DNA from: Nonomuraea angiospora
GTDB taxonomy: Bacteria > Actinomycetota > Actinomycetes > Streptosporangiales > Streptosporangiaceae
Reading direction: 5' to 3'
NCBI RefSeq assembly: GCF_014873145.1
Contig: NZ_JADBEK010000001.1
Span: 5,456,001-5,520,000, forward strand
DNA length: 64,000 bases
The notes beneath the pieces were generated by a model. It searched no databases, was not told the origin of the DNA, and saw only the letters and a program-made list of their open reading frames with translations. The translations under genes and the position numbers were made by a program. Below, piece by piece: positions 5,945 through 31,332 of the stretch (position 1 is the first letter of the stretch; every line of letters starts with the position of its first letter).

Positions 5945-7372
5945 TCAGAGGACGTTCTCCCACGCTTCCGCTTCTCGGTGGAGACGCTCGGCCAGCGTCT
6001 TCAGCTTGCGTTTGAGGTCGCGCCTAGTACTGCCTCGGGTTTTGATCGCGTGGCAGTTCGGACACAATGCAATCATGTTCGCCGGGTGGTCACGGCCCTG
6101 GGCGGCCCGTTCGTCGACATGGTCGACTTCGAGGATGGCATCGCCCCTGTCGGTGACATCAGCCGGTTGGCCACCGCAGTCTGGTTTCTCGCACATGCCC
6201 TGGGCACGCAGCATCACGGCAATGCGAGCATCCGCAGAGCGGAAGTAACGGTCAGAAGCAGTGCGGGTCGTTCTGCCGTGGTTGAGCGATTCCTTACGCT
6301 CTACTGACGCACACAGCTTGCGATACTGCCGGCCTGCATCTTGTTTGGTGACCGCAGTAGGCGCTTCTGTCTCGAAGGTTTCGTCGTGCGTCTGCTGGTC
6401 ATCTTGAGCAAGCCGTTCTAGTACTGACTGTGGCCATTGATCGCGGAAGGGAGACGGCACCGGGGCCAGTACCCACGCGAACTCGCGCCGCCACTGCTTG
6501 TCCTCGCCCTTGCCCCACACCAGGCGCCGGTCCACGATGACGGTCCACGTGTCAAACCCCCAATCGCCGCCGGCGGGCTGGTGCCAGTACCTGATGGGCT
6601 TCTGTTCCTGCTGGCAGACGAGCAGTTGTGCGTTGCCTCCGCCTTTCAGAGTTTGATCGCCGTTCAATCCTTGACCGCGGTACTCAATCAAATCCGTGCC
6701 AGGAATGCTTTGGTCGTCGTAGGGGCCCTTAGCGTCGGAGAAGACGCACATCAGCCCGTCGTCGAGGGTACCGATTCCGCTGGTCCACTGGCCGCCTAAC
6801 TCTGCGTGAATTGCAGTGCGCTTAGGGAACGCCACGAATCCGGGGATCGGAAGCATCAGGTCAGCCTCTCGGCCGGCTGGCACTACACCGTCCAGGCCAA
6901 CGGCCGCAACCAGCCCCACCGGAACGGGGTTGAAGAAGCGGGCCAGCAGGGTCGCAGCCGCGTTCGCCACCAGACCAAGGTCCCCAGTCAGCATCGCATA
7001 CACCGCCGGTGTGAAGCCGGCTTCGGGATTGACTTGGTCAAGCACGCTGATGGTGGGCCGGCGTCGCCCGGGCAGCGGTGCGATCCGATGCGCGTCCTTG
7101 ATCTCCCAGAGGGCATCCGTGGCGTGCAAGGTCCAGAACGGGTACTGGGCACTATCGGCCGTGGCACCGTTGCCGTAGGTCGCCTCGAGTTTCTCAAACG
7201 CGGCGCGCGTCTCCCGCCAGGTCGTTAGCCGCGGCGCGCCCACGGCAACGCGGCCGAGTAGCCACAGCAACAGAAGAGGACGATGCGTAGGGGCGCTGCC
7301 TCGCACAGCGCGAGGGGACAGCTGGCCGATCATCTTGATGAAGTCACGTCGAGGGGTGGGGGAAGTAACCAC
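5945..7372 (-). CDS. ScoMcrA-like modification-dependent restriction enzyme (sulfur-binding domain, SRA-like, HNH)
   Basis: 475 residues with three recognisable parts. Residues 25-90 carry HRPLLLLWLLGR and YPFW, the signatures of the sulfur-binding domain (SBD) that reads phosphorothioate DNA in ScoMcrA; the His-Arg pair (30-31) and Tyr-Pro (77-78) match family pocket positions as I recall them. Residues about 190-300 contain IEYRGQGLNGDQTLKGG, resembling an SRA/YDG-type base-flipping domain. The C-terminus (about 394-445) is an HNH nuclease: CEKPDC, LEVDHVD and NMIALCPNCHAIK, with two CxxC-like zinc pairs. In the family this cuts phosphorothioated or cytosine-methylated DNA. The N-terminal head domain of ScoMcrA is absent here. 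The gene is monocistronic and convergent with the EVE-like gene. Confidence 0.82.
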   Translation of the reverse strand: MVTSPTPRRDFIKMIGQLSPRAVRGSAPTHRPLLLLWLLGRVAVGAPRLTTWRETRAAFEKLEATYGNGATADSAQYPFWTLHATDALWEIKDAHRIAPLPGRRRPTISVLDQVNPEAGFTPAVYAMLTGDLGLVANAAATLLARFFNPVPVGLVAAVGLDGVVPAGREADLMLPIPGFVAFPKRTAIHAELGGQWTSGIGTLDDGLMCVFSDAKGPYDDQSIPGTDLIEYRGQGLNGDQTLKGGGNAQLLVCQQEQKPIRYWHQPAGGDWGFDTWTVIVDRRLVWGKGEDKQWRREFAWVLAPVPSPFRDQWPQSVLERLAQDDQQTHDETFETEAPTAVTKQDAGRQYRKLCASVERKESLNHGRTTRTASDRYFRSADARIAVMLRAQGMCEKPDCGGQPADVTDRGDAILEVDHVDERAAQGRDHPANMIALCPNCHAIKTRGSTRRDLKRKLKTLAERLHREAEAWENVL

Positions 7373-9664: not shown

Positions 9665-9675
9665 ATGCGCTCCTC

Positions 9676-9681
9676 TACACT
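9676..9681 (+). promoter_or_regulatory. Putative -10 box for a leaderless transcript
   Basis: TACACT, 7 nt before GTG 9689. A -10 hexamer at this distance predicts that transcription begins at or next to the start codon, giving a leaderless mRNA, which is common in actinobacteria. No clear -35 is visible. Confidence 0.45.
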
Positions 9682-9688
9682 GGTCGCC

Positions 9689-11119
9689 GTGGTAGAGGAT
9701 CAGAGATCAGAGGCCGGCCGGAGACTGACGGTTGAGTTTTCCGCCTGGTTCGACGAGGAACGCATACCCGCGGAGCGCTTTTACCAGGAAGGCCTCCTGG
9801 TGCTGGACGCTAATGTCCTGCTTGACCTATACCGCATGACTCCTGAAGCGAGGACCCAGGTATTAGGGGCATTTAGGAGCGTAGCGGATCGCCTTTGGGT
9901 CCCACATCAGGCCGCTCTCGAGTTCAGCCGAAACCGCAAACGCGCGGTAGAGGATCGAATGTCCTCCTTCAGACAAACAAAGCATGCGCTGAAGACAGCT
10001 TCAGACAATGCCAGCAACGTCATCGAAAGAGCGATCGGCCAGCTACAGAAACTCCGTGAACGTACAGGAACATCAAGAAAGTGGGGGGAAGAAGGCGCCA
10101 CCGCTGATCAGAAGGCCCTCCGGACAGCACTAGATCAGGCAATAGCGCCCGCCCTTACTGAGATTTCCGCGCTAGAAGCAGAGCAAGACCTCTTCCCGAA
10201 GGACGTACAATCTTCTGACCCTCTGCTCGCAGAAATAGATGACATCCTCGATGGGAAAATAGGGCGGCCCTTTTCACATCAACAACTTCGCGTTCTAGTC
10301 GAAGAAGCGCATCTATTTCGGTATCCCAACAAAATGCCACCTGGGTATCTAGATGCCGACAAAGATACGGATCTGCGTTCCAGTGGCGACTATCTCGTTT
10401 GGCGACAGACCCTGGATAAAGCGACTGAGGGCGATCTCCGAGAGCGCTTAATTCTATTGATCACCAGCGACTTCAAGGCTGACTGGTGGGAACTAGACCG
10501 CAATCATAAGCCGCTTGGCCCTCGCCGTGAACTCATTCAAGAGATGCGAGATATAGCGCAAGCTGACCTAATGCTCACTTCACTAAAGGAATTCCTCGGC
10601 GGAGCCCAATCCTACCTCGCCTCAGGCATCTCAAGTCGGACGATCGAAGAACTTGAGGTGCTTGAACAATCCGAGATTTCTGCGGATGAGGACGAAGAAC
10701 CGTTTTCGGAAGACCTCACACCCTTCGCCGGCCGCATCAATGTTTACGACCTAAGTCCGCGAGACTTCGAGCGACTCATACGCTATCTACTCACTCGCAT
10801 GGGCTATAGAATCAGATCGGAGGATACTCACACATATCGAGGTTTCGATTTCATCGTGACGAGACCAGAAGCGCCCGACAATCTCATAATCGTCGAAGCT
10901 CGACAATCAAACACTCCCATTATTGCGAGGCGAATGTTTGAGCTCGCTGGAGCACTTCGGAGCGGCAATTACACTTCCGCCCTATTTATCACCAATGCCC
11001 GCATTGGCCAAGCGGCGAAAGTTCAGGCTTCGAAGCATCCGATCCGACTAATTGATGGCACCGAGTTTGTCGATTTACTAGACAAATTCGGCATTGAAGT
11101 TGACCTCTACTATGATTAG
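9689..11119 (+). CDS. PIN-like domain / Mrr-type restriction endonuclease fusion
   Basis: Two nuclease-like domains in one chain. The N-terminal half has LLVLDANVLLDLYR (about residues 36-49), the first PIN motif of the PIN_8/DUF4935 type, then a long helical insert rich in Lys/Glu and a late ITSDFKADWW motif (about 266-275) as the last acidic PIN site. The C-terminal part (about 350-470) starts YDLSPRDFERLI, then RGFDFIV and IIVEARQS, the Mrr_cat fold. There the usual (E/Q)xK reads E-A-R, so Lys is replaced by Arg. Such fusions are typical of stand-alone defence or abortive-infection genes. ATG 9665 is possible, but a -10 box points to GTG 9689. Codon use is distinctly AT-richer than its neighbours, suggesting recent transfer. 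It converges on the herA-nurA-dam operon. Confidence 0.78.
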   Translation: MVEDQRSEAGRRLTVEFSAWFDEERIPAERFYQEGLLVLDANVLLDLYRMTPEARTQVLGAFRSVADRLWVPHQAALEFSRNRKRAVEDRMSSFRQTKHALKTASDNASNVIERAIGQLQKLRERTGTSRKWGEEGATADQKALRTALDQAIAPALTEISALEAEQDLFPKDVQSSDPLLAEIDDILDGKIGRPFSHQQLRVLVEEAHLFRYPNKMPPGYLDADKDTDLRSSGDYLVWRQTLDKATEGDLRERLILLITSDFKADWWELDRNHKPLGPRRELIQEMRDIAQADLMLTSLKEFLGGAQSYLASGISSRTIEELEVLEQSEISADEDEEPFSEDLTPFAGRINVYDLSPRDFERLIRYLLTRMGYRIRSEDTHTYRGFDFIVTRPEAPDNLIIVEARQSNTPIIARRMFELAGALRSGNYTSALFITNARIGQAAKVQASKHPIRLIDGTEFVDLLDKFGIEVDLYYD

Positions 11120-11230: not shown

Positions 11231-12478
11231 TCAGGCCAGGCGCAGCTGCTCATCAAGCGGAACAGTCATCGGGGGAAGGGTCGTGATCAAAAGTTCATTG
11301 GCGGACCGCTTCCCAACACGACCGGCAGCCGAATAGCGCGTACTTACCAGACGCTTACTAATCCGCCAGCAGCGCACGCCAAGCATCTCACGATCCGACT
11401 TTGACGGATTCATTCGATCATGCCCATATAGCCACGTGTTCTGCGTGAGCATCGGATGATTGTCATAGCTGAGGAGCCACCTGAATTGTGCTTTTGTACG
11501 CAGGTAGTCAGCGAGACTGAGGTGCAGCGTGTCATCAGCAATCCCGGACGCGCCAATCCTTTCACCACCGTAGCCGCCTCGTGGATCAAACGAGGTTCGA
11601 TAGAGAACTGATGACTTCTCGACATAAGGTGGATCGAGGTACGCAACCACCCGAGACGGCAGAAGCTGCGGGTAGTGCTCGGGGACATCGTCGAGAGTCT
11701 GGCGCCAGTCCTTGCACCAAACATCTATAAGCCGTCCAACGTCGTATAGGTGGCCGATGTATCGAAGCCGCTCAGCTATTGCATCAGGATTCCAACGGCA
11801 CCCGATCGGATAGTCACTGCTTTGCGCGCGTCCTCCGATAGGACCTGCCTTGCCATGCAGGATCCCCGAAAAGGTGGTCCGGTTGAGAAATAGGCACTTC
11901 ATTGCGGCAGTCAAGCGGCGGTTGCGCCGCTTCATGGTCGGTCGGGGGTTCCATCCGCGCCAATAATCCCAACGTTCGACAGCTGTCGCACCACCACAAC
12001 GGACGTACCGTTTCCATTCGTCGTGCATGCGATCGACGAGCCGTTCGGTGTCATCAGCCGCCGCCTGCCAGAAGGCGACGACAAGCGGATCAGCATCCGC
12101 AAGAAGGATACGGTCCACTACGCCTTCACCGATCATGCGCAGTGATGCTGAAGCACCACCGGCGAAGGGCTCGACCAGAAGGTTGATCTCAGGCACTTCC
12201 CGGGATCGTTTCGCCGACGTGATCACCCGTGCGATGACGGGAGCGAGTGACGACTTGGCCCCAGGGTAACGTAGTGGCGACTGGTAGCGGCCACGGGCCA
12301 GGTTGTGCGAGATCGGCGCAAGTTCTGCGGCCCACGGGCGAGCCTGGGCGCTGATCGCCTCGCCAGTGCCGAAGAGATCGGCGGACCGGGCAAGCTCGCT
12401 AGCGGCGATGCTTGTCGGTGGCGAGAGTACAGTGGTCATGATCACATCATGCCGGACGGACCGATCATTGGGATACAC
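11231..12478 (-). CDS. D12-class N6-adenine DNA methyltransferase (Dam-like)
   Basis: 415 residues with LRYPGAKSSLAP (about 69-80), the N-terminal motif of D12/Dam methylases. The SAM-binding motif is EPFAGGASASL (about 103-113) and the catalytic motif is LDPPY (281-285). It therefore methylates adenine N6 in duplex DNA. The spacer between motifs (about 170 residues, with several Arg/Trp-rich blocks) presumably holds the target-recognition region. It is the last gene of a minus-strand operon behind herA and nurA (8-bp gap after nurA). In that setting it would mark self DNA for the HerA-NurA nuclease machine, an inference not tested here. GTG 12478 gives the longest form; an in-frame ATG at 12439 is an alternative because residues 1-13 look non-conserved. 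Confidence 0.88.
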   Translation of the reverse strand: MYPNDRSVRHDVIMTTVLSPPTSIAASELARSADLFGTGEAISAQARPWAAELAPISHNLARGRYQSPLRYPGAKSSLAPVIARVITSAKRSREVPEINLLVEPFAGGASASLRMIGEGVVDRILLADADPLVVAFWQAAADDTERLVDRMHDEWKRYVRCGGATAVERWDYWRGWNPRPTMKRRNRRLTAAMKCLFLNRTTFSGILHGKAGPIGGRAQSSDYPIGCRWNPDAIAERLRYIGHLYDVGRLIDVWCKDWRQTLDDVPEHYPQLLPSRVVAYLDPPYVEKSSVLYRTSFDPRGGYGGERIGASGIADDTLHLSLADYLRTKAQFRWLLSYDNHPMLTQNTWLYGHDRMNPSKSDREMLGVRCWRISKRLVSTRYSAAGRVGKRSANELLITTLPPMTVPLDEQLRLA

Positions 12479-12482
12479 AGTT

Positions 12483-12506
12483 CGGCCTATCTCTTGAGAT
12501 AGGCCG
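12483..12506 (-). promoter_or_regulatory. Hairpin spanning the nurA stop codon, before the methylase
   Basis: Perfect 10-bp stem (12483-12492 with 12497-12506) with a 4-nt loop, covering the last codons and stop of nurA and ending 4 nt before the methylase start region. It could attenuate transcription, stabilise a processed end, or mask the methylase ribosome site. No T-run follows on the minus strand. Confidence 0.5.
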
Positions 12507-13896
12507 GTGGTTGTACCGCTTGAATGTTGAGCTTCAGCCCCGGGATGTTCTCCTGTGCCATCATTGTTAGGACAGACCTCCCAACCCCGAGTGGTAGCGC
12601 CGCGGCCGAGTGCGCGAGAGCGACCGGCACAACAGCATGTTGGTACATACGGGTCCGGAGCGAATCGAGGACCTCACAGATCAACCGAAGAGTTGGGTAG
12701 GCTTCCCAACCCTCAGCTTGGGCGCCGCCATCGTATGGCGATAGACCGGGCGCTGGTAGGACTGTGATGACCAAGGGATCCCCAGCGCTGGTGCGGTAAA
12801 TGAAGCGACGACCATAGAACTCGTCCACGCCATAGCGGTTGTTCGCCGGCCGTCCTGATATCCGGTTGATGTAGTCGTTGGTGAGTCGCATGACGTGGCC
12901 GATCGGGATCAGATCCTTGATCTGCTCTGCGTGCTCAACGAATGCGCCAGACTTCTCGATGCCCACGACCAGCGGGGCTGCCAAGCCTCGCTTCACACAC
13001 CACGTGCTCAAGTCACCGAGATAATCCTGGAACCGGCGCTTAAGTGGAGCCAGCGGGCCGAAAAGCGCGAGCGGACCATCTGTGATGAAGATGGTGTGGC
13101 GCAGAACATCAGGCGCTGTGTTGGCGAAGAAGTTTAGGTAGCACAGAGACATCAGCCGCTCGGCGGCCGTCATGACACGTCCCATGGGCGTGAAGTTCGA
13201 GCCCTCGACGTTGTACTCCTCGTGGGTCCGGAGTACATCCGCTAGATACAGCCGCACCTTACACGATGGGCAAGTGCCACCCGTGGCAGCGACCCGAAGC
13301 GGGCTAACCTGTGTTGCCTTGAGCCCACATCCGGGGCATACCCGAAGATCGATGGCCGTCGCAGGCGCTCCACGAGAGCCATGTAGTGCAAGTAGGCCGT
13401 CGGCGAGTGTCATGATAGTGCTCGAGTCGAATCGCGAGTTCTGGAGAAACGCGTCGAGCTCCACGCGCCAGGTGTCTACGCCGCTCATACCCGGGCGTGC
13501 CAGTTGTGAGCCGGGAAGAGCAACATCGAAGGCGTACTCGGTATGAGAGCGACGAACCTCTCGCGGGTCGATGTACTTCGCCCGCTCGAGACGTCGGAAT
13601 ACATCGAGGCGGATCATCGAGCCGGCGACTCGGAGGTACCCGACTTTTACGGTGGGATGCTCACGAGTGGTCTCGACCTCGGTGTCCGACCCATCCACCG
13701 TGATCGAGAAGTCGACGTCGCCCAGATTGCCGATCACGGGCAGGTTTTCGAGCGGCAAGCATAGTACATCGATTTCGTCCCTGCTGTTAGGACGGGCACT
13801 CGTGATCGTCCAGCGCTGGAGCGCAGCCTTGACCGCCTCATTACGGACCGTGCCTACATGACCCAGGCGAGAAGCCTTCTCTCCCTCGTATGACAT
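12487..13896 (-). CDS. nurA: NurA-domain nuclease (HerA partner)
   Basis: 469 residues. FSITVDGSDTEVE (63-75) is the NurA motif I (D-G-S), the first Mn-binding Asp. A conserved Glu-containing block WRVELDAFL (about 143-151), TLADG (163-167) and FITDGPLALFG (270-280) supply the other acidic sites, and GIEKSG (about 313-318) the Lys. A zinc-ribbon-like insertion carries CPGC (187-190) and CPSC (209-212), which is not in all NurA proteins. NurA dimers are 5'-3' exo/endonucleases that sit on the HerA hexamer and degrade DNA as HerA pumps it. The start is 3 bp after the herA stop, so the two are translated together. The bacterial setting with a methylase points to defence rather than the archaeal repair role. 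Confidence 0.83.
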   Translation of the reverse strand: MSYEGEKASRLGHVGTVRNEAVKAALQRWTITSARPNSRDEIDVLCLPLENLPVIGNLGDVDFSITVDGSDTEVETTREHPTVKVGYLRVAGSMIRLDVFRRLERAKYIDPREVRRSHTEYAFDVALPGSQLARPGMSGVDTWRVELDAFLQNSRFDSSTIMTLADGLLALHGSRGAPATAIDLRVCPGCGLKATQVSPLRVAATGGTCPSCKVRLYLADVLRTHEEYNVEGSNFTPMGRVMTAAERLMSLCYLNFFANTAPDVLRHTIFITDGPLALFGPLAPLKRRFQDYLGDLSTWCVKRGLAAPLVVGIEKSGAFVEHAEQIKDLIPIGHVMRLTNDYINRISGRPANNRYGVDEFYGRRFIYRTSAGDPLVITVLPAPGLSPYDGGAQAEGWEAYPTLRLICEVLDSLRTRMYQHAVVPVALAHSAAALPLGVGRSVLTMMAQENIPGLKLNIQAVQPPAYLKR

Positions 13897-13899
13897 CAG

Positions 13900-15906
13900 C
13901 TACTCGCCTGCAATCTGAAAGTCGACGCATGCGAGGCCTGCTGCCCTTCGTGCATCGTTGACCATGGAATGGTCAAACTTCGCAATCTGCAGCGGAACGA
14001 TAAACTTGCCGGAGTAGGTTTTCATACGTACAAAGCCGACGTCCTCAGCCCGCATAATTAGGGGAGCCCATACCTTGAAGTCGTAGTAGTGGGCCAACTC
14101 GCGCGCTTCATGGTCGGAATTGAGGTGTGCTACCAGCCAATTCGAGGTGTTGGACAGGATTCGCTTGTCGACCGAGGTTACTTCCTGCGTCGCGTAGATA
14201 AGCCCCATATGATACTTCGCAGCCTCCTTCGACAGACGCACCCATGGATCATCGGCCACATCGCGTCCGCCGCGTTCGAATAGATTGTGGGCTTCCTCAA
14301 CGATGATCTGCATGTCAACGGGGTCGATGTCGTCGCGAAACCGCTCGCCCGCTCGGTTCAGCAAGTGCGTAACAATGCGCTCCGACATCACCTTGGCGAC
14401 CTGATCGTTGCCGCTCGAGAGATCGACGATCGCGAGGCGGCCAGCAAGCATGTCCTCCCACAAATGCTCGCCGACATCACCGGCCGACTGCGGCCCGTGA
14501 AAGGCGCGGATGGAACGAATGGCGGAAGTCACTCCTGTGTACTTATAGACGTTCCATATGTCGGCGAAGTGGCAGTTCTGCCTCTCGTGCCACTTGGGAA
14601 AGTCGTCAGGCCGCTCACCGACCCACTCCGCGAGTGCAAGCGCGCCAGCTGGAGAAACTACCTGGTAGCTGCCCGACCGGCCGGCTTGGGCAACTGCTCC
14701 AGAGTGGGCTGCCATAAATGCGTCCATTGGGCCGGATGGCGCTACGATAACGAGGTTCTGCGGCAGGGACGTACCCTGGAAGCCGCACTTTGCCAGAAGA
14801 CCGAAATATGCGACCATTGCCCAGCCCCAACGGCTGTGAGCACTGCGATCGTTCCTGTCAGGCTCGGAGAGAACAGCCGACCGGAAGTCCTTGCCATAGT
14901 TGGTGTTGACTGCTGCGGTGGCTTGGCTGACAAGGCTCCATGCCGCATCCAGAACCTCTCGATCATAGAAGTTGATGCGCAGGGGCTTTTCTCGACTGTC
15001 GGTTGAGTCGGGCTCCACCTTGTAGATTCGCACCGTACTGTCGTCATCGCCAAGCAGTCGAAGGCCGGTGCCGTCCTGCCTGTTTACGTTGGCGTACTCG
15101 CCTTGTGGGTCGAAGATGAGCTGGCCGATGGCACGCTGATGCTCCGAGCCGTAGCGATGAACAGCCGTGACCAATGTCTTGATGGTATTCGACTTGCCAG
15201 TCCGAGTCATACCAAAAACGGCTGTCTTCCGGCCAATAAAGTCGGAGACATCGATGCGAACCTCGGCTCTGTCAGTGCCAGCGATCGCAGCCTTGCGACG
15301 TGAGGCGGCAAACCGAATTGTCCCGATCGCGAGAGCATCTCTCTTGTCAGCGGGCTCGGGAAAGGATGCAAGCCACGACAACACGTCCGTCGACGGGAGA
15401 AAGACCTGGTAACGGGCTGAGGCCACTACGTTGTCGATGTCGGCACCATATTCGATCTGTGCGTCACGGGCATCGGTCAACGTGTAGAAGGTCCCCAGAA
15501 CCTCACAGTCAAACGCGGACTGCTGCAGTTCGTTGCGGGTGAGTACGTCGGTAACGTCGTCGAATCCGGCCCCCGATGCGCCAGCATCGCGAACAACTGC
15601 CAGTCGCGTCTGGACTAGCTCAGCCTCATTGGGCAGCGGAGAAGTCCCGCGCACGCGAAGCAGGATGACTTCCTGGTCCTCAAGTACGAATCCCCAGTCA
15701 GTGTTGTCGGCTGCCGCGGCGAGAAGGAAGCCACCTCGGGGGACACCTCCGGCTTCGCGCTTTTTGAAGTCGTCGGTCAGAACGACTGCCGAGTCGTAGT
15801 CAAGCCGGAAGATGGCACCGACTGGCATGCAGCCTTTGTTGACTAGAGCTGTCAGCGGCTTCCTGAGTTCGATAGTTGCCTGAACCTCCGCCGCGATCCC
15901 TGACAC
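13900..15906 (-). CDS. herA: HerA-like DNA translocase ATPase
   Basis: 668 residues. The N-terminal about 130 residues form a HAS-barrel-like region (VGAIFRLDYDSAVVLTDDF). The DUF87/HerA-FtsK motor follows with Walker A VFGMTRTGKSNT (about 233-244), Walker B MQIIVEEAHNLFERGG (about 530-545), and a sensor/arginine-finger area around YATQEVTSVDKRILSNT, ending with a typical HerA NTD-CTD closure. HerA forms a hexameric ring that drives DNA into the NurA nuclease. It is the first gene of the herA-nurA-methylase operon; the promoter must lie in 15907-16320. Nothing in the sequence indicates damage. Alternatives such as a conjugative coupling ATPase are unlikely given the adjoining nurA. Confidence 0.88.
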   Translation of the reverse strand: MSGIAAEVQATIELRKPLTALVNKGCMPVGAIFRLDYDSAVVLTDDFKKREAGGVPRGGFLLAAAADNTDWGFVLEDQEVILLRVRGTSPLPNEAELVQTRLAVVRDAGASGAGFDDVTDVLTRNELQQSAFDCEVLGTFYTLTDARDAQIEYGADIDNVVASARYQVFLPSTDVLSWLASFPEPADKRDALAIGTIRFAASRRKAAIAGTDRAEVRIDVSDFIGRKTAVFGMTRTGKSNTIKTLVTAVHRYGSEHQRAIGQLIFDPQGEYANVNRQDGTGLRLLGDDDSTVRIYKVEPDSTDSREKPLRINFYDREVLDAAWSLVSQATAAVNTNYGKDFRSAVLSEPDRNDRSAHSRWGWAMVAYFGLLAKCGFQGTSLPQNLVIVAPSGPMDAFMAAHSGAVAQAGRSGSYQVVSPAGALALAEWVGERPDDFPKWHERQNCHFADIWNVYKYTGVTSAIRSIRAFHGPQSAGDVGEHLWEDMLAGRLAIVDLSSGNDQVAKVMSERIVTHLLNRAGERFRDDIDPVDMQIIVEEAHNLFERGGRDVADDPWVRLSKEAAKYHMGLIYATQEVTSVDKRILSNTSNWLVAHLNSDHEARELAHYYDFKVWAPLIMRAEDVGFVRMKTYSGKFIVPLQIAKFDHSMVNDARRAAGLACVDFQIAGE

Positions 15907-20084: not shown

Positions 20085-23000
20085 TTAGCCGGTACCCGGT
20101 GAGTGTCCCGGCGATAGATCGAGCAGGCCCCTCGTCGAGCGGGCGGTCGAGGTTCCTGACTCGTCGCGCTCGATATCCGGTTCCGCTACGTCTTTCCAGC
20201 CGCCGTCGAATCCGAAGTAATCTATCCGGCCAGCCGGGTTCTGGATACGATAGATCTTGAAATTATCATTTTGCGCGTTCTCTACGACGTAGAGCCAGAA
20301 CAAGTCTCCATCTTCGACTGCCTGGCCATGCTGACGGCGCGACAGCATGACGCCGGCGACGGACCACTCACCGCCTGTCGACTTGATCTCGATCCGCCTC
20401 ACGAGTTCACCGCGCCTGTCGTACGACTCGACATCGAACCCCGCGTTGCTGTGCGCCATCTCGCGGGGATTGCGGCCGCATTTGCGTTCGTACTCCAACA
20501 CGCGCGCAACGCCAGCTATGTCGATCGGCGACAGGTCTGGAGCCTCGTCTCCAACGGTCCCGCGATCGCCCTCGTCCTCGTCGGTCTCCACGACGTAGGT
20601 ACGCAGGCGGTTCTGTCGCCCGGTTCGGGTATCCGGTCCCCCATCCGTGCGCCTTCGCTCTCCCGTTCCCTTAACACCGCCGCCACCCGTGCCCGTACCA
20701 CGGCGGTGTTCCTTCTCGCCGTCAGAAGCATTGTCTCTGGCTAGCTCCACGGCTTCACCGTTGCTGCTTCCATCGACGTAGCCCTGGGCACCGGCAACCG
20801 CTGGCGGGGTGTACACGTAGTCTTCGGCCCCGATGGCGTCATCATCTACGTCTGCCGTGGGGCTCCATGCGATCTCGTGCTCGGCCGTGTCAAGTTTCGC
20901 AATACCAAAGTCATCGAGCGCGCGGTGTGCATCCTCGGGCGAGGTCGCGCTCAAGATCGGTTCAAGCCGCATGGCGAATGGACCGGGATCGTCGTCGGGC
21001 GCGATGGCGCGGGCAAGTTCCCGCGCGAGGGCTCGATCCGACGCCCCGTCTGCATACACGAGATGGCCCTCGTCAGGCAGGTAGATCGCATCGGCAGGTT
21101 CGGGACCGATCTCATATGGGTGGCCGAAGAGCTCGGCACGGTAGGAAACCTGGAGTCGGGGTGCGCGCAGGATTGTGAGTTCTTGTAGCTCATCGAGGAG
21201 CTGGTCCTCATCGAACACCCGACGGAGAGCACTCATGCGGTCGGCGATCCTGGCCGGGAGCTGGGTGTCGACCCGGGTATCGACGTCGACCACCTTGGCC
21301 TTGATGAGTTCCTCGACTCGCCGCACTCCGGCTTCGGCAAGGGCCAACCAGGTGCCATGGACCCGAGGGATTACGTTGTGCGCCAGCTGAGGGAAACGTT
21401 TGTGAAGCGCTCGGCTGTCTTCGAAGAAGAGTTCGTCCGGCCGCGCCAGGATTCCGCGGGCATCAAGGGCGGAGCGCATGCGCCCCAGCGCCGGAAGAAC
21501 GGTGCCAGCCTCGGCGTGCCCAAGAAGTTCAGACAGCCGGCTCCAGCAGCCGTGGATGGCATCCTTGCCCTCCTGGTCCACCCAGTCCGTTCCGTACTCG
21601 TGAAGGATCGATCGCAGGACGGCCTTAATCTCGGTCGGTCCGGGTTCGTGCTTCACGCCGACGACATCGAAGAATGGCTTGTACCGGAGCCAGTCTTCGG
21701 AGAGCGCTGTGCCCCACCTGCCGAAGGGCGGCTGCTGCCAGAACACCATGGAGGGCACAACAAAGCGTCCTCCACCTAGGTGGACACACAGTGTCCCGCG
21801 CAATTGCCTCACGGCAAGTTGATCCGCGTTGTCGCTCAGCACCCGGTAGACGTCTGCGCTCATCTCGCTTCCGGTGGTTGCGCAATGTTGGAGATGAGCC
21901 ACAACTGTCCTGACCGGCGGAGCCGATGGCATGCCGAGCCAGGTCAGTTGCGTGAAGTAGTGGTTCTGGACATCCGAGGCCAATCCGAGTTCGTTGCCCT
22001 GAGTGCCGTACAAGTGGCGGGCGTTGGCGGGTAGCACCTCGCTGGGCTTCGCGCGTCCGCCGCGCTTGAGTGGAAGCCATCGTTGCGTGGTCAGGAGCTC
22101 CGGCGGGCTCTCCGGCAGGTCATCACGCGCCTGGAGTGTCCGCAACACCGCTCCGACGATGGAAGCGTCAGGGTCTTCCTCTGCGCCAACAAGCCCTTGG
22201 ACCGCCAAGGTAAGGGCGTGGTCGGAGGGTAGTTTCTGTACACCGAGCCACTCCAAGACAGAGGGAGCTACGCCGGCGGTGAGTGCCACGGGCAGAGCTG
22301 GTGCCAACGTCGATATGTCCCGAGACGGCAGGTGTACCCCGGACGCGGGATGTAGCTGCTCGTCGGTGCAGGGCACAAGTGCGACTGATGCAAGGCTCTT
22401 CTGGAGTCTGGCGAGTTCCTCCTGGTGAACGGCAATGAGCTTTAGAAGTTCGGTTGCCTGCTCAATGGAGATTCGCCCCGCCTCTGCCGCCGGGAGAGCA
22501 TGAAGGCGAATGTAGTCGATGATGTTGAGCGGTCGCGCACCGAGCTCGCTCAGAAGTTTGCGATAGTCCCGCGCTGCGGTGTCGACTACCAGGGTCGCAA
22601 CCCCAATTGGATCGCGGAAGTCGTTCGGAAGCGACAACTTCGTTAAGGGCGCAAACCCGGAGGCCGTCGGGAAGATCGGAAGCTCGGCAATCTTCTGACG
22701 AGTTGTGGAGTCGATGATTCCCACCAGGTTGCGGTTGAGCCATTCGAGCAGACTGTCAGCAAGTACGCCGAGTGCTTCGGCGGCTACATCGTGCAGAATG
22801 CGCGCGGCACAGGCGACGTCCAGGGGTGGGCATGCATCTCGGAGCCCTGGGCAGTGCGTCTCAATCGTCTCCACATCTGCGATCATCAAATCATCGACCA
22901 GGACCTCGAACAGCGTGCCGTCATCCTCCGATGCTGGCCACACGACCTTAGACGGCAGCGCCACCGTGCCGTTGCGGCAAGGAACGATCGCCACGTCCTC

Positions 23001-24494
23001 GATGCCATCGAGGTTGGCGACCTTCCCCTGTAGGCGTTCGAGCGTGTTGAGAACCTGGATCAGTTCATCGCGGTCGAGCGGACCATCTGACAAGTCGAAC
23101 GCTTCGGTGATGCCTTTGGACTTGAGCTGCTCAACGACATCCCGACCGGTCAGCGGGCGGATTCCATAATTCGTGTACAGGGTGTTCGTGTGCAGGCGGC
23201 GGTGCAGGTGCTCGGCGACCATCGGCAGGCCGATCTTGGCTAGCACCTGGCCAGACTCGTAGAGCTCTGTCCCTGCCGGAAGCAGCACGTCTTTCGGGAG
23301 CGCACGTGTTCCGCCGATAGTGTCGACGACGGGAAGGCGCGGTACCGCCTGGCGCAAGGCACTTAGGTACGCCGCAGCGTGATTCTGCTGGTCGGTGCTG
23401 GATCCACGGCTCAGGTCAGTGATGCCGCCGAGGAACTCCCAGAACGCTGGCACGCCAAGCCGGTCGGCGATTCTGCCTGCTTCCTTCGCTATGCCTCGTG
23501 CGACTGCGGAGATGGCTGCGCGATTCCACTCCGAGTAATACCCGGAGGACTCGAAGCGGACCGATTTCCGGTCAGTGCTGGGGAAAAACGTAGCATTGAC
23601 GTTGGCGGGCAGTCCGCTGGGGGTTTGGGTCGGCAGTGTCGCGTAGAGCACACCGGATTTGATGCTCTCATCGACCGGCACTGCGATGGTGACCGTCGTG
23701 GATCGTTCCTGAGGGATTAGGCCTTCCGCGCGTTCCACCAACAGGCGAGCATCTGTCTGGAAGTCTGACTGGATGGTGAGCCATCGTGTGCTGGAGGCCC
23801 CGTCGTGGACGACCACCCCGTCCTCGACATCTTCGCGCTCGATGCGGAACCTGCCCCGCGTGGTATCGAGCTCAATGCTGGTCACGTGCTGGAGGAACAG
23901 CACCGTGGCGCGAGCGTCCTCGATGAGCGCCATCTCGAGTTCCGCGATCGTCTCGTCACTTACCGGCGGGACTTCGAGTTTCGCCCGAAGTAGACTGGCG
24001 GCCCGTGCCCACGGCAAAACAAATGTTGTTCCTGGTCCCACGTGCGCTCTGGCACATTGCCCGTCACATGATCGGAGGCGTTGGTCCTCCGGGGCAGTTT
24101 CGTCAAGAATCCAGTGCTCATCGCCGTACAGAAGCTCAGGAGCATCCGTGATCTGATACACCGAGGTGAAGCCGACGCCGAAAGCTCCAGTTGTAGATGC
24201 GTCGCCGGCTTTTGTCCGTCCGGCGAACCGGCGGAACGCGTGCAGGTCACATCGCTTCGGCCAAGGGCAGTTGTCGCCGCCCTCTCCACAGTCGGTGAAG
24301 GTGCCATCGTTCCAGACCGTGAGCGCGTCCTCGGTCACTGTGAATCTAATGGTGGTGGCGTTGCCAGCGTCATCGGCGTTCTGGGTGAGCTCATGAGGAA
24401 TGGTCGTCGCCCCGCCAAGATCCCGCAGCGTCGTCGCAAGTGTGTCGAGATAGTCGGACGACTTGGAAAGTGTCCGGCGCTTCTGCTCGCTCAC
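20085..24494 (-). CDS. Sacsin-like GHKL ATPase with C-terminal DUF3883 domain
   Basis: A 1469-residue protein. The N-terminus holds a GHKL (Hsp90/sacsin-type) ATP-binding fold: HELTQNADDAGNA (about 34-46, N-box with Asn/Asp), TVWNDGT (about 58-64) and GAFGVGFTSVYQITD (about 103-117, glycine lid). A long alpha-helical, poorly conserved middle follows (about 300-1200). An acidic, Gly-rich linker (about 1255-1330) leads to DUF3883 at about 1375-1450, with NAGFDVESYDRRGEL and RRIEIKSTGG, a PD-(D/E)XK-like D...ExK. Proteins with this architecture are enriched in defence islands, where the ATPase is thought to sense and the terminal domain to cut, though the mechanism is mostly unproven. GTG 24494 overlaps the stop of a 49-codon ORF by GTGA, implying coupling. 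Confidence 0.82.
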   Translation of the reverse strand: MSEQKRRTLSKSSDYLDTLATTLRDLGGATTIPHELTQNADDAGNATTIRFTVTEDALTVWNDGTFTDCGEGGDNCPWPKRCDLHAFRRFAGRTKAGDASTTGAFGVGFTSVYQITDAPELLYGDEHWILDETAPEDQRLRSCDGQCARAHVGPGTTFVLPWARAASLLRAKLEVPPVSDETIAELEMALIEDARATVLFLQHVTSIELDTTRGRFRIEREDVEDGVVVHDGASSTRWLTIQSDFQTDARLLVERAEGLIPQERSTTVTIAVPVDESIKSGVLYATLPTQTPSGLPANVNATFFPSTDRKSVRFESSGYYSEWNRAAISAVARGIAKEAGRIADRLGVPAFWEFLGGITDLSRGSSTDQQNHAAAYLSALRQAVPRLPVVDTIGGTRALPKDVLLPAGTELYESGQVLAKIGLPMVAEHLHRRLHTNTLYTNYGIRPLTGRDVVEQLKSKGITEAFDLSDGPLDRDELIQVLNTLERLQGKVANLDGIEDVAIVPCRNGTVALPSKVVWPASEDDGTLFEVLVDDLMIADVETIETHCPGLRDACPPLDVACAARILHDVAAEALGVLADSLLEWLNRNLVGIIDSTTRQKIAELPIFPTASGFAPLTKLSLPNDFRDPIGVATLVVDTAARDYRKLLSELGARPLNIIDYIRLHALPAAEAGRISIEQATELLKLIAVHQEELARLQKSLASVALVPCTDEQLHPASGVHLPSRDISTLAPALPVALTAGVAPSVLEWLGVQKLPSDHALTLAVQGLVGAEEDPDASIVGAVLRTLQARDDLPESPPELLTTQRWLPLKRGGRAKPSEVLPANARHLYGTQGNELGLASDVQNHYFTQLTWLGMPSAPPVRTVVAHLQHCATTGSEMSADVYRVLSDNADQLAVRQLRGTLCVHLGGGRFVVPSMVFWQQPPFGRWGTALSEDWLRYKPFFDVVGVKHEPGPTEIKAVLRSILHEYGTDWVDQEGKDAIHGCWSRLSELLGHAEAGTVLPALGRMRSALDARGILARPDELFFEDSRALHKRFPQLAHNVIPRVHGTWLALAEAGVRRVEELIKAKVVDVDTRVDTQLPARIADRMSALRRVFDEDQLLDELQELTILRAPRLQVSYRAELFGHPYEIGPEPADAIYLPDEGHLVYADGASDRALARELARAIAPDDDPGPFAMRLEPILSATSPEDAHRALDDFGIAKLDTAEHEIAWSPTADVDDDAIGAEDYVYTPPAVAGAQGYVDGSSNGEAVELARDNASDGEKEHRRGTGTGGGGVKGTGERRRTDGGPDTRTGRQNRLRTYVVETDEDEGDRGTVGDEAPDLSPIDIAGVARVLEYERKCGRNPREMAHSNAGFDVESYDRRGELVRRIEIKSTGGEWSVAGVMLSRRQHGQAVEDGDLFWLYVVENAQNDNFKIYRIQNPAGRIDYFGFDGGWKDVAEPDIERDESGTSTARSTRGLLDLSPGHSPGTG

Positions 24495-28633: not shown

Positions 28634-28677
28634 GCGCGCCCTGCAGGATTCGAACCTGCGACCGTCGGATTAGAAGT
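28634..28677. repeat. Attachment-site copy: 44-bp duplicate of the tRNA-Arg 3' half
   Basis: Identical over 44 bp to 31258-31301, which is the part of the tRNA-Arg gene from the 3' end to the anticodon loop. It lies just downstream of the integrase. This is the classical att duplication left by integration into a tRNA gene, marking the border between two stacked elements. Confidence 0.9.
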
Positions 28678-31078: not shown

Positions 31079-31258
31079 TACGCCGTTCCAGGGCTCGAAA
31101 CCGCCGTTCCCACCTGGGAAAACGGCCTGCGAGCATTCCGCGTATGTTCCGCGACCAGTGGCACAGGGCTGCTTTCGGCCGCCTCGCCCTGCCTACGAGG
31201 CAAGACCACCGATCATGCAAAAGACCAGGTCAACCCGCAGATTGCCTGGTCTCGGTTG

Positions 31259-31332
31259 CGCGCCCTGCAGGATTCGAACCTGCGACCGTCGGATTAGAAG
31301 TCCGGTGCTCTATCCAGCTGAGCTAAGGGCGC
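31259..31332 (-). tRNA. tRNA-Arg (anticodon TCT)
   Basis: Folds as a full cloverleaf on the minus strand. The 7-bp acceptor stem is GCGCCCT/AGGGCGC, D-arm GCTC...GAGC, anticodon stem CCGGA with loop CTTCTAA, and T-arm with GGTTCGAATCC. No CCA is encoded. The 3' half is duplicated at 28634-28677, so this gene is the integration target for the island. Confidence 0.95.

What the first reader, a model, noticed from the sequence alone, without database searches (positions are those of the whole stretch)
11231..15906. herA-nurA-adenine methylase operon: a candidate undescribed defence system
Three genes in one minus-strand operon (gaps 3 and 8 bp) encode a HerA translocase, a NurA nuclease with an added zinc ribbon, and a D12 adenine methylase. 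HerA-NurA is a known end-processing machine in archaea, and HerA paired with other effectors forms known bacterial defences. A cognate DNA methylase fits self/non-self marking, giving a restriction-like translocating nuclease. The unit is inside a tRNA-anchored island with other restriction genes.
Basis: partly seen in the sequence, partly recalled or inferred. Interest (0 to 1): 0.9.

Follow-up and report, generated by a model that had tools for sequence, protein, structure and literature searches.

The report
Methylase-paired HerA-NurA defence cassette
A mobile three-gene cassette, found in bacteria, an archaeon and phages, pairs a DNA-threading motor and nuclease with a DNA-marking enzyme; it probably destroys unmarked foreign DNA, but its function was not tested here.

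Summary
An operon (window 11231-15906, minus strand, gaps 3 and 8 bp) encodes a HerA-type ATPase, a NurA-type nuclease with a zinc ribbon, and a D12 adenine methylase, in a tRNA-Arg-anchored defence island. The trio is a conserved, mobile unit. Among 52 distinct loci found through NurA alone (examined), 50 show HerA beside it and 46 a DNA methyltransferase; 2 of the other 6 are cut by contig ends. Hosts include actinobacteria, a Chloroflexi MAG, Deferribacter, a haloarchaeal plasmid and Vibrio phages. No other gene family recurs in more than 5 of 25 genome loci. The methylase changes side, strand and family (D12 in 43, PF01555 N6/N4 in 3) while HerA and NurA stay together. The closest solved relatives of both core proteins are TdpA and TdpB of the Thermus Tdp system. 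Best reading: a restriction-modification-like system in which HerA-NurA threads and degrades unmethylated DNA. Two precedents limit novelty: Tdp, and the Thermus ICETh1 NurA-TdtA-methylase operon, published as DNA-donation machinery. Function is inferred, not shown.

The parts
13900..15906 (-). HerA-type ATPase/DNA translocase (668 aa, GTG start preceded by GGAGG), first gene of the operon
   Evidence: DUF87 E=1.4e-13; profile vs PDB: TdpA E=2.7e-24, other HerA-type chains weaker; Walker A GMTRTGKS, Walker B VEEAH; next to NurA in 50 of 52 distinct loci
12487..13896 (-). NurA/TdpB-type nuclease (469 aa) with a zinc ribbon; 3 bp after herA
11231..12478 (-). D12-class DNA adenine methylase; GTG start gives 415 aa, the more likely start ATG 12439 gives 402 aa
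   Evidence: PF02086 E=1.7e-11; PADLOC PD-Lambda-5_B 6.4e-49; profile vs PDB: adenine methyltransferase 7m6b 3.8e-21, DpnII-type and Dam weaker; only D12 match in the 13.1-Mb genome
31258..31332 (-). tRNA-Arg(tct), anchor of the island (context, not part of the cassette)
   Evidence: ARAGORN
28634..28677 (.). 44-nt direct copy of the tRNA end, att-like scar (context)
   Evidence: 100% identical to 31258-31301; further 43-nt copies in the genome at 5388787 (100%) and 5403307 (95%) and, inverted, 5447857

Best explanation
The trio is a mobile restriction-modification-like defence cassette. The D12 methylase marks host adenines at a short, unknown site. A HerA hexamer bound to a NurA dimer loads on double-stranded DNA, probably at ends such as those of injected phage DNA, threads it and degrades both strands. 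Methylated self DNA is spared, either because the motor or nuclease stalls at m6A in any context (as phosphorothioate is recalled to do in Tdp) or because the methylase supplies the specificity. Shown here: the genes, the homologies, the conserved putative active-site residues, the three-gene unit, exchange of the methylase, and presence on mobile elements. Inferred: complex formation, methylation of host DNA, protection of methylated DNA, and phage restriction.
For: (1) Loci found with NurA alone carry HerA in 50 of 52 and a DNA methyltransferase in 46 of 52 distinct loci. Eight finds fetched last (seven new) all had both. (2) D12 is rare: 26 of 119 Actinomycetota genomes hold one over the cut-off; five NurA-positive genomes listed there (G000, G062, G107, G011, G041) have exactly one D12 match each, beside NurA. 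The list of genomes without D12 was cut, so other NurA-positive genomes without D12 could be among them. (3) Of 385 called genes in 25 loci only HerA (25), NurA (25) and D12 (24) recur in more than 5 loci. (4) The methylase is downstream in 20, upstream in 19 and on the opposite strand in 7 of 46 loci (my tally), and the orders need 7 changes on the NurA tree (33 loci), so linkage survives rearrangement. (5) Both core proteins are closest to TdpA/TdpB. (6) NurA Asp67 is kept in 43 of 44 rows; the exception, L042 (Asn), has no HerA or methylase in the 16 kb examined. (7) Two Vibrio phages carry the trio between integrase and excisionase genes. (8) 125 neighbour proteins of 25 loci match 184 PADLOC families against 18 for 109 control proteins. 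(9) Patchy: 9 of 396 Actinomycetota genomes; the two same-genus genomes searched lack it.
Against: No functional data. Three cyanobacterial plasmids carry XRE-HerA-NurA with no D12 or PF01555-type methylase in the 15 kb examined and no PF01555 match anywhere on the plasmid (D12 was not sought plasmid-wide). In Thermus ICETh1 a similar operon is needed for DNA donation, and loss of its methylase had only minor effects on transfer (PMC7767461), which a classical self-protecting methylase would not predict. D12 co-varies less with NurA (r=0.79; 0.56 in the close set) than HerA does (0.98; 0.92). No methylation reader was identified. HerA frames are broken in L024, L048 and L051, so not every copy is intact.
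Confidence: 0.64

Rival explanations
1. DNA-donation (conjugation-like) machinery as in Thermus ICETh1: the HerA-type motor pumps DNA out of the cell, NurA trims it, and the methylase protects or marks it.
For: In T. thermophilus HB27 a NurA-like gene, TdtA (HerA/FtsK type) and a pfam01555 methylase share an operon in a tRNA-inserted element; TdtA and NurA are needed for transjugation (PMC5365140, PMC7767461). The window trio lies in a tRNA-anchored island.
Against: The trio is carried by Vibrio phages, which move by packaging. No other gene family recurs in more than 5 of 25 loci, so no common transfer partner is seen. Homology to TdtA itself was not tested; its sequence was not at hand.
Confidence: 0.13
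2. A house-keeping double-strand-break end-processing pair with an incidental methylase neighbour.
For: HerA-NurA was described as end-resection machinery in archaea and Deinococcus, though a 2026 study of T. kodakarensis doubts it (PMC12977600).
Against: Accessory: 9 of 396 phylum, 8 of 296 class and 4 of 80 family genomes (overlapping samples, each including G000). Methylase in 46 of 52 loci. On plasmids and in phages. Structure nearer TdpB than repair NurAs.
Confidence: 0.05
3. Abortive or guard system: HerA-NurA is held inactive by the methylase or by host methylation and attacks host DNA when a phage disturbs methylation.
For: The PADLOC profile PD-Lambda-5_B matches the methylase; Vassallo et al. 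[quoted passage not shown] HerA-Sir2 and HerA-DUF4297 defences exist (cited in PMC12977600).
Against: The PD-lambda-5 partner was not found among the 10 window proteins scanned. An exonuclease needing ends is an odd killer of a chromosome without free ends (inference).
Confidence: 0.13

Closest known systems
Tdp system (TdpA/TdpB with phosphorothioate-making TdpC), Thermus; An et al. 2025, doi 10.1038/s41589-024-01832-w (not held; contents recalled, title and citation seen in reference lists)
   Same: HerA-type and NurA-type subunits; best solved match of both; coupled to DNA modification (recalled)
   Different: The third conserved gene here is a DNA methylase (D12 or PF01555), not a phosphorothioate enzyme; NurA is 94 residues longer than the TdpB chain (469 vs 375) and has a zinc ribbon
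ICETh1 operon of T. thermophilus HB27: Tth111II/TthHB27I, NurA-like TTC1878, TdtA TTC1879, pfam01555 methylase TTC1880 (PMC5365140, PMC7767461)
   Same: NurA-like, HerA-type and DNA methylase genes in one operon on a tRNA-inserted element
   Different: Published role is DNA secretion; has an added type IIG enzyme; methylase is PF01555, not D12; sequence kinship not tested here
Archaeal and Deinococcus HerA-NurA
   Different: Weaker match than TdpB; repair setting; no methylase partner in the passages seen
HerA-Sir2 and HerA-DUF4297 anti-phage systems
   Same: HerA motor plus effector
   Different: Effector is NurA-type and a methylase is present
PD-lambda-5
   Same: The methylase matches the PD-Lambda-5_B model (6.4e-49)
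   Different: No PD-Lambda-5_A match among the 10 window proteins scanned
HerA/FtsK capture systems (DndFGH, BREX-related capture)
   Same: HerA motor feeding a nuclease in modification-linked defence (PMC10853773, PMC12839542, passages)
   Different: NurA is not mentioned in either main text (0 hits)

Membership tests
Tdp (TdpABC) | TdpA-like HerA-type ATPase | tested here: met
   HerA profile vs PDB: TdpA E=2.7e-24, best of 9 sequences listed
Tdp (TdpABC) | TdpB-like NurA-type nuclease | tested here: met
Tdp (TdpABC) | Conserved third gene is the phosphorothioate enzyme TdpC | tested here: not met
   The third conserved gene is a methylase (46 of 52 loci); no further family in more than 5 of 25 loci. 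The TdpC sequence itself was not available to search with.
Tdp (TdpABC) | Nuclease blocked by phosphorothioate in DNA | not testable with these tools
   Needs biochemistry; the feature is recalled
Repair HerA-NurA (archaea, Deinococcus) | Stable core gene pair of the lineage | tested here: not met
   9 of 396 Actinomycetota genomes; the two same-genus genomes searched lack it
Repair HerA-NurA (archaea, Deinococcus) | NurA family profile match | tested here: inconclusive
   No Pfam match at E<=0.1, but clear fold match
Restriction-modification system | Nuclease and methylase genes linked as a unit | tested here: met
   46 of 52 distinct loci; HerA/NurA/D12 in 25/25/24 of 25 loci in gene clustering
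Restriction-modification system | Methylation protects DNA from the nuclease | not testable with these tools
   Needs expression or purified proteins
PD-lambda-5 | PD-Lambda-5_B methylase | tested here: met
   E=6.4e-49
PD-lambda-5 | PD-Lambda-5_A partner | tested here: not met
   No match at E<=0.1 among the 10 window proteins scanned; other window ORFs were not scanned
MADS | mad8-like ATPase plus the other mads proteins | tested here: not met
   HerA hits mad8 at 1.3e-9 only; among the 10 window proteins scanned the one other mads match is a transposase at 0.036
ICETh1 TdtA operon | Homology of HerA/NurA to TdtA/TTC1878 | not tested
   Sequences not at hand; the published gene content is similar

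The most novel reading that the evidence does not exclude
HerA-NurA is a general restriction module of a wide, unnamed class of restriction-modification systems: a ring motor and exonuclease that reads modification generically (or through its methylase) and therefore can be combined with any DNA-marking enzyme, D12 m6A methylases, PF01555 N6/N4 methylases, or phosphorothioation (Tdp). The Thermus 'transjugation' operon would be a member whose role needs another look.
Probability: 0.42. Interest if true: 0.86.

Novelty: new variant of a known kind. Interest (0 to 1): 0.7.

Why it matters
If right, it adds a class of restriction system that needs no sequence-specific endonuclease. A processive dsDNA-eating machine is licensed by a swappable DNA mark, and the class spans actinobacteria, Chloroflexi, Deferribacter, a haloarchaeon and phages. 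It links two separate literatures (Tdp defence, Thermus DNA donation) and makes the question of what bacterial HerA-NurA is for directly testable. It could also matter for transformation barriers in antibiotic-producing actinobacteria.

Tried and rejected
Repair role: rejected as the main reading because of the patchy distribution and the methylase linkage. Chance neighbours: rejected. MADS, BREX, DISARM and Dnd membership: only the HerA-type or methylase domain gives hits among the proteins scanned. Pfam, PADLOC and NCBIfam gave no family for the NurA-type protein; PHROGs gave two weak hits of unknown function at its zinc-ribbon region. The NurA profile against PDB sequences gave nothing at E<=1 with A1 and mostly zinc-ribbon or zinc-finger proteins with A2 and A5; only the fold search settled it. 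Dropped rows: L054, because the NurA profile does not find NurA in it; L037, because its contig has the length of that of L007; L085, because it is the L004 contig. In the tree and correlation, loci without D12 or HerA, the fragmentary L027 and the near-duplicate L051 were left out, leaving 33. A sequence-specific NurA/HerA reader looks unlikely because methylases are exchanged while the core is kept, but this was not tested. A structure of HerA or of the complex could not be predicted. A search of plasmids with a TdpB piece found nothing, so the partners of TdpB-like nucleases on plasmids stay unknown; L055 NurA against phages found nothing; three more NurA queries against plasmids returned the same five records as before.

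Papers: passages only for PMC9519451, PMC12839542, PMC10853773, PMC10855626, PMC12977600, PMC11291478, PMC7767461 and PMC5797428; abstract, outline and passages for PMC5365140; reference-list passages for PMC12345140 and PMC13251355. An et al. 2025 (Tdp) and Iyer et al. 2004 are not held; the mechanism of Tdp is recalled. 'Not found in print as a methylase-linked defence system' rests on searches of an open-licence library only, seen as listings apart from the papers named here.
Full report
WHAT IS THERE. Three minus-strand genes form a tight operon: HerA 13900-15906, NurA-type nuclease 12487-13896 and D12 methylase 11231-12478, with gaps of 3 and 8 bp. The methylase may start at ATG 12439 (402 aa), the length of many listed homologues, which makes its gap 47 bp. 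HerA carries DUF87 (E=1.4e-13) and the methylase PF02086 (E=1.7e-11). The nuclease has no family hit in Pfam, PADLOC or NCBIfam at the limits used.

THE TRIO IS A UNIT. I searched with NurA only. The genome collection gave 26 loci: all have HerA and 25 have D12; in the other (L013) the contig starts inside HerA. Adding genome, plasmid, phage and viral-contig finds gives 45 distinct loci with NurA, the window included. HerA is not seen in two, L042 (a NurA with Asn for Asp67) and L053 (contig starts at NurA). A methylase is present in 39. The six without are L013 and L041 (contig ends inside HerA), L042, and three cyanobacterial plasmids, L047, L049 and L050. Seven further distinct loci all have both HerA and D12; an eighth, L085, is a copy of L004. 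Total: 52 loci, HerA in 50, methylase in 46 (D12 43, PF01555 3). L045/L051, L049/L050 and L043/L044 are close pairs left in these counts; L027 is fragmentary, and HerA is in pieces in L024, L048 and L051. In 20 control regions of 18 kb, picked at arbitrary places in six genomes, no HerA, NurA or methylase profile matched at E<=1e-5.

D12 IS RARE, SO LINKAGE IS NOT CHANCE. In 119 Actinomycetota genomes 26 hold a D12 over the cut-off. Five NurA-positive genomes listed there, G000, G062, G107, G011 and G041, have exactly one D12 match each, beside NurA. The list of genomes without a match was cut, so NurA-positive genomes without D12 (such as G135, whose trio has a PF01555 methylase) cannot be counted from it. 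Of 385 genes of 90 aa or more, called by a simple script of mine in 25 loci, only HerA (25 loci), NurA (25) and D12 (24) recur in more than 5 loci.

METHYLASE EXCHANGE. The methylase is downstream on the same strand in 20, upstream in 19 and on the opposite strand in 7 of 46 loci (my tally). On the NurA tree of 33 loci the three orders need 7 changes. Distances correlate 0.98 for NurA-HerA and 0.79 for NurA-D12 (0.92 and 0.56 in the 25 close loci; none of 1999 permutations as high). This control ignores shared ancestry of the hosts. In L040, the Halorarius plasmid and Deferribacter the methylase is a PF01555 N6/N4 type. L026 has a diverged D12 that matches PD-Lambda-5_B much better than the window's does (4.4e-94; 6.4e-49). 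A core that keeps its nuclease while changing its methylase is hard to square with a sequence-specific nuclease. Either m6A is sensed in any context or the methylase gives specificity. This is inference.

MOBILITY AND DEFENCE SETTING. The window's tRNA-Arg has a 44-nt end copy at 28634-28677 and more copies up to 98 kb away in the genome, so the island is probably a nested integration. Neighbours here include a type III restriction subunit (NF012027 3.6e-116, under the curated cut-off; the ORF beside it looks like its methylase by eye but had no NCBIfam hit), a type IV HNH enzyme, a PIN_8-Mrr protein, transposases and TmtA. Across 25 loci, 125 neighbour proteins (of 144 listed) match 184 PADLOC families at E<=1e-15, against 18 for 109 control proteins from five genomes. 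These are families, not proteins, and the controls are not matched locus by locus, so the ratio is only indicative. In two Vibrio phages the order is integrase, HerA, NurA, methylase (opposite strand), excisionase, a usual cargo position of temperate phages (recalled). NurA is accessory: 9 of 396 phylum, 8 of 296 class and 4 of 80 family genomes (overlapping samples).

WHAT IT MOST LIKELY DOES. A modification-coupled translocating nuclease: the methylase marks self, and HerA-NurA threads and destroys unmarked dsDNA. T. kodakarensis HerA-NurA was reported to cut both strands exonucleolytically, and its authors suggest an antiviral role (PMC12977600). Tdp, the closest relative in structure, is recalled to be blocked by phosphorothioate in self DNA. 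Steps not shown: methylation, complex formation, protection, restriction.

AGAINST. Thermus ICETh1 has a NurA-like, TdtA and pfam01555-methylase operon whose motor and nuclease are needed for DNA donation, and whose methylase is nearly dispensable for transfer (PMC5365140, PMC7767461). Three cyanobacterial plasmids carry the pair without a linked D12 or PF01555 methylase. These keep the DNA-transfer and methylase-independent readings open.

NOVELTY. Parts and logic are known (Tdp, ICETh1, HerA defences). A recurrent HerA-NurA-methylase cassette treated as a restriction system was not found in ten searches of an open-licence library. I rate it a new variant of a known kind.

Noticed in passing
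L042:8624-9871: Orphan NurA with Asn in place of the first putative catalytic Asp, no HerA and no methylase in the 16 kb examined: looks like a decayed copy.
   Followed up: partly
L048:3093-6903: HerA of the Deferribacter plasmid copy is interrupted by an IS200/IS605 element with TnpB.
   Followed up: no
L051:1288-3499: One of two closely similar Vibrio phages has HerA split into two frames, the other (L045) has it whole.
   Followed up: no
L047, L049, L050: Cyanobacterial plasmids carry a small XRE-type regulator gene followed by HerA-NurA, without a linked methylase; L047 has AbiTii next door.
   Followed up: partly
window 5945-7372: Type IV HNH enzyme resembling phosphorothioate-DNA-binding restriction enzymes (NF045808 2.8e-19, under its cut-off), which might conflict with phosphorothioate marking but not with m6A.
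   Followed up: no
window 9665-11119: Fusion of a PIN_8 domain and an Mrr-type nuclease domain, convergent with the cassette.
   Followed up: no
window 20085-24494: TmtA-like protein (sacsin-type domain with NO VEIN C-terminal domain), PADLOC E=0.
   Followed up: no
window 28634-28677 and 31258-31332: Repeated integrations at one tRNA-Arg gene: end copies also at genome 5388787 and 5403307 and, inverted, 5447857.
   Followed up: partly
L043:7614-8519 and L044:7610-8662: Their D12 methylases lack DPPY/DPPF; L043 reads DPAY.
   Followed up: partly
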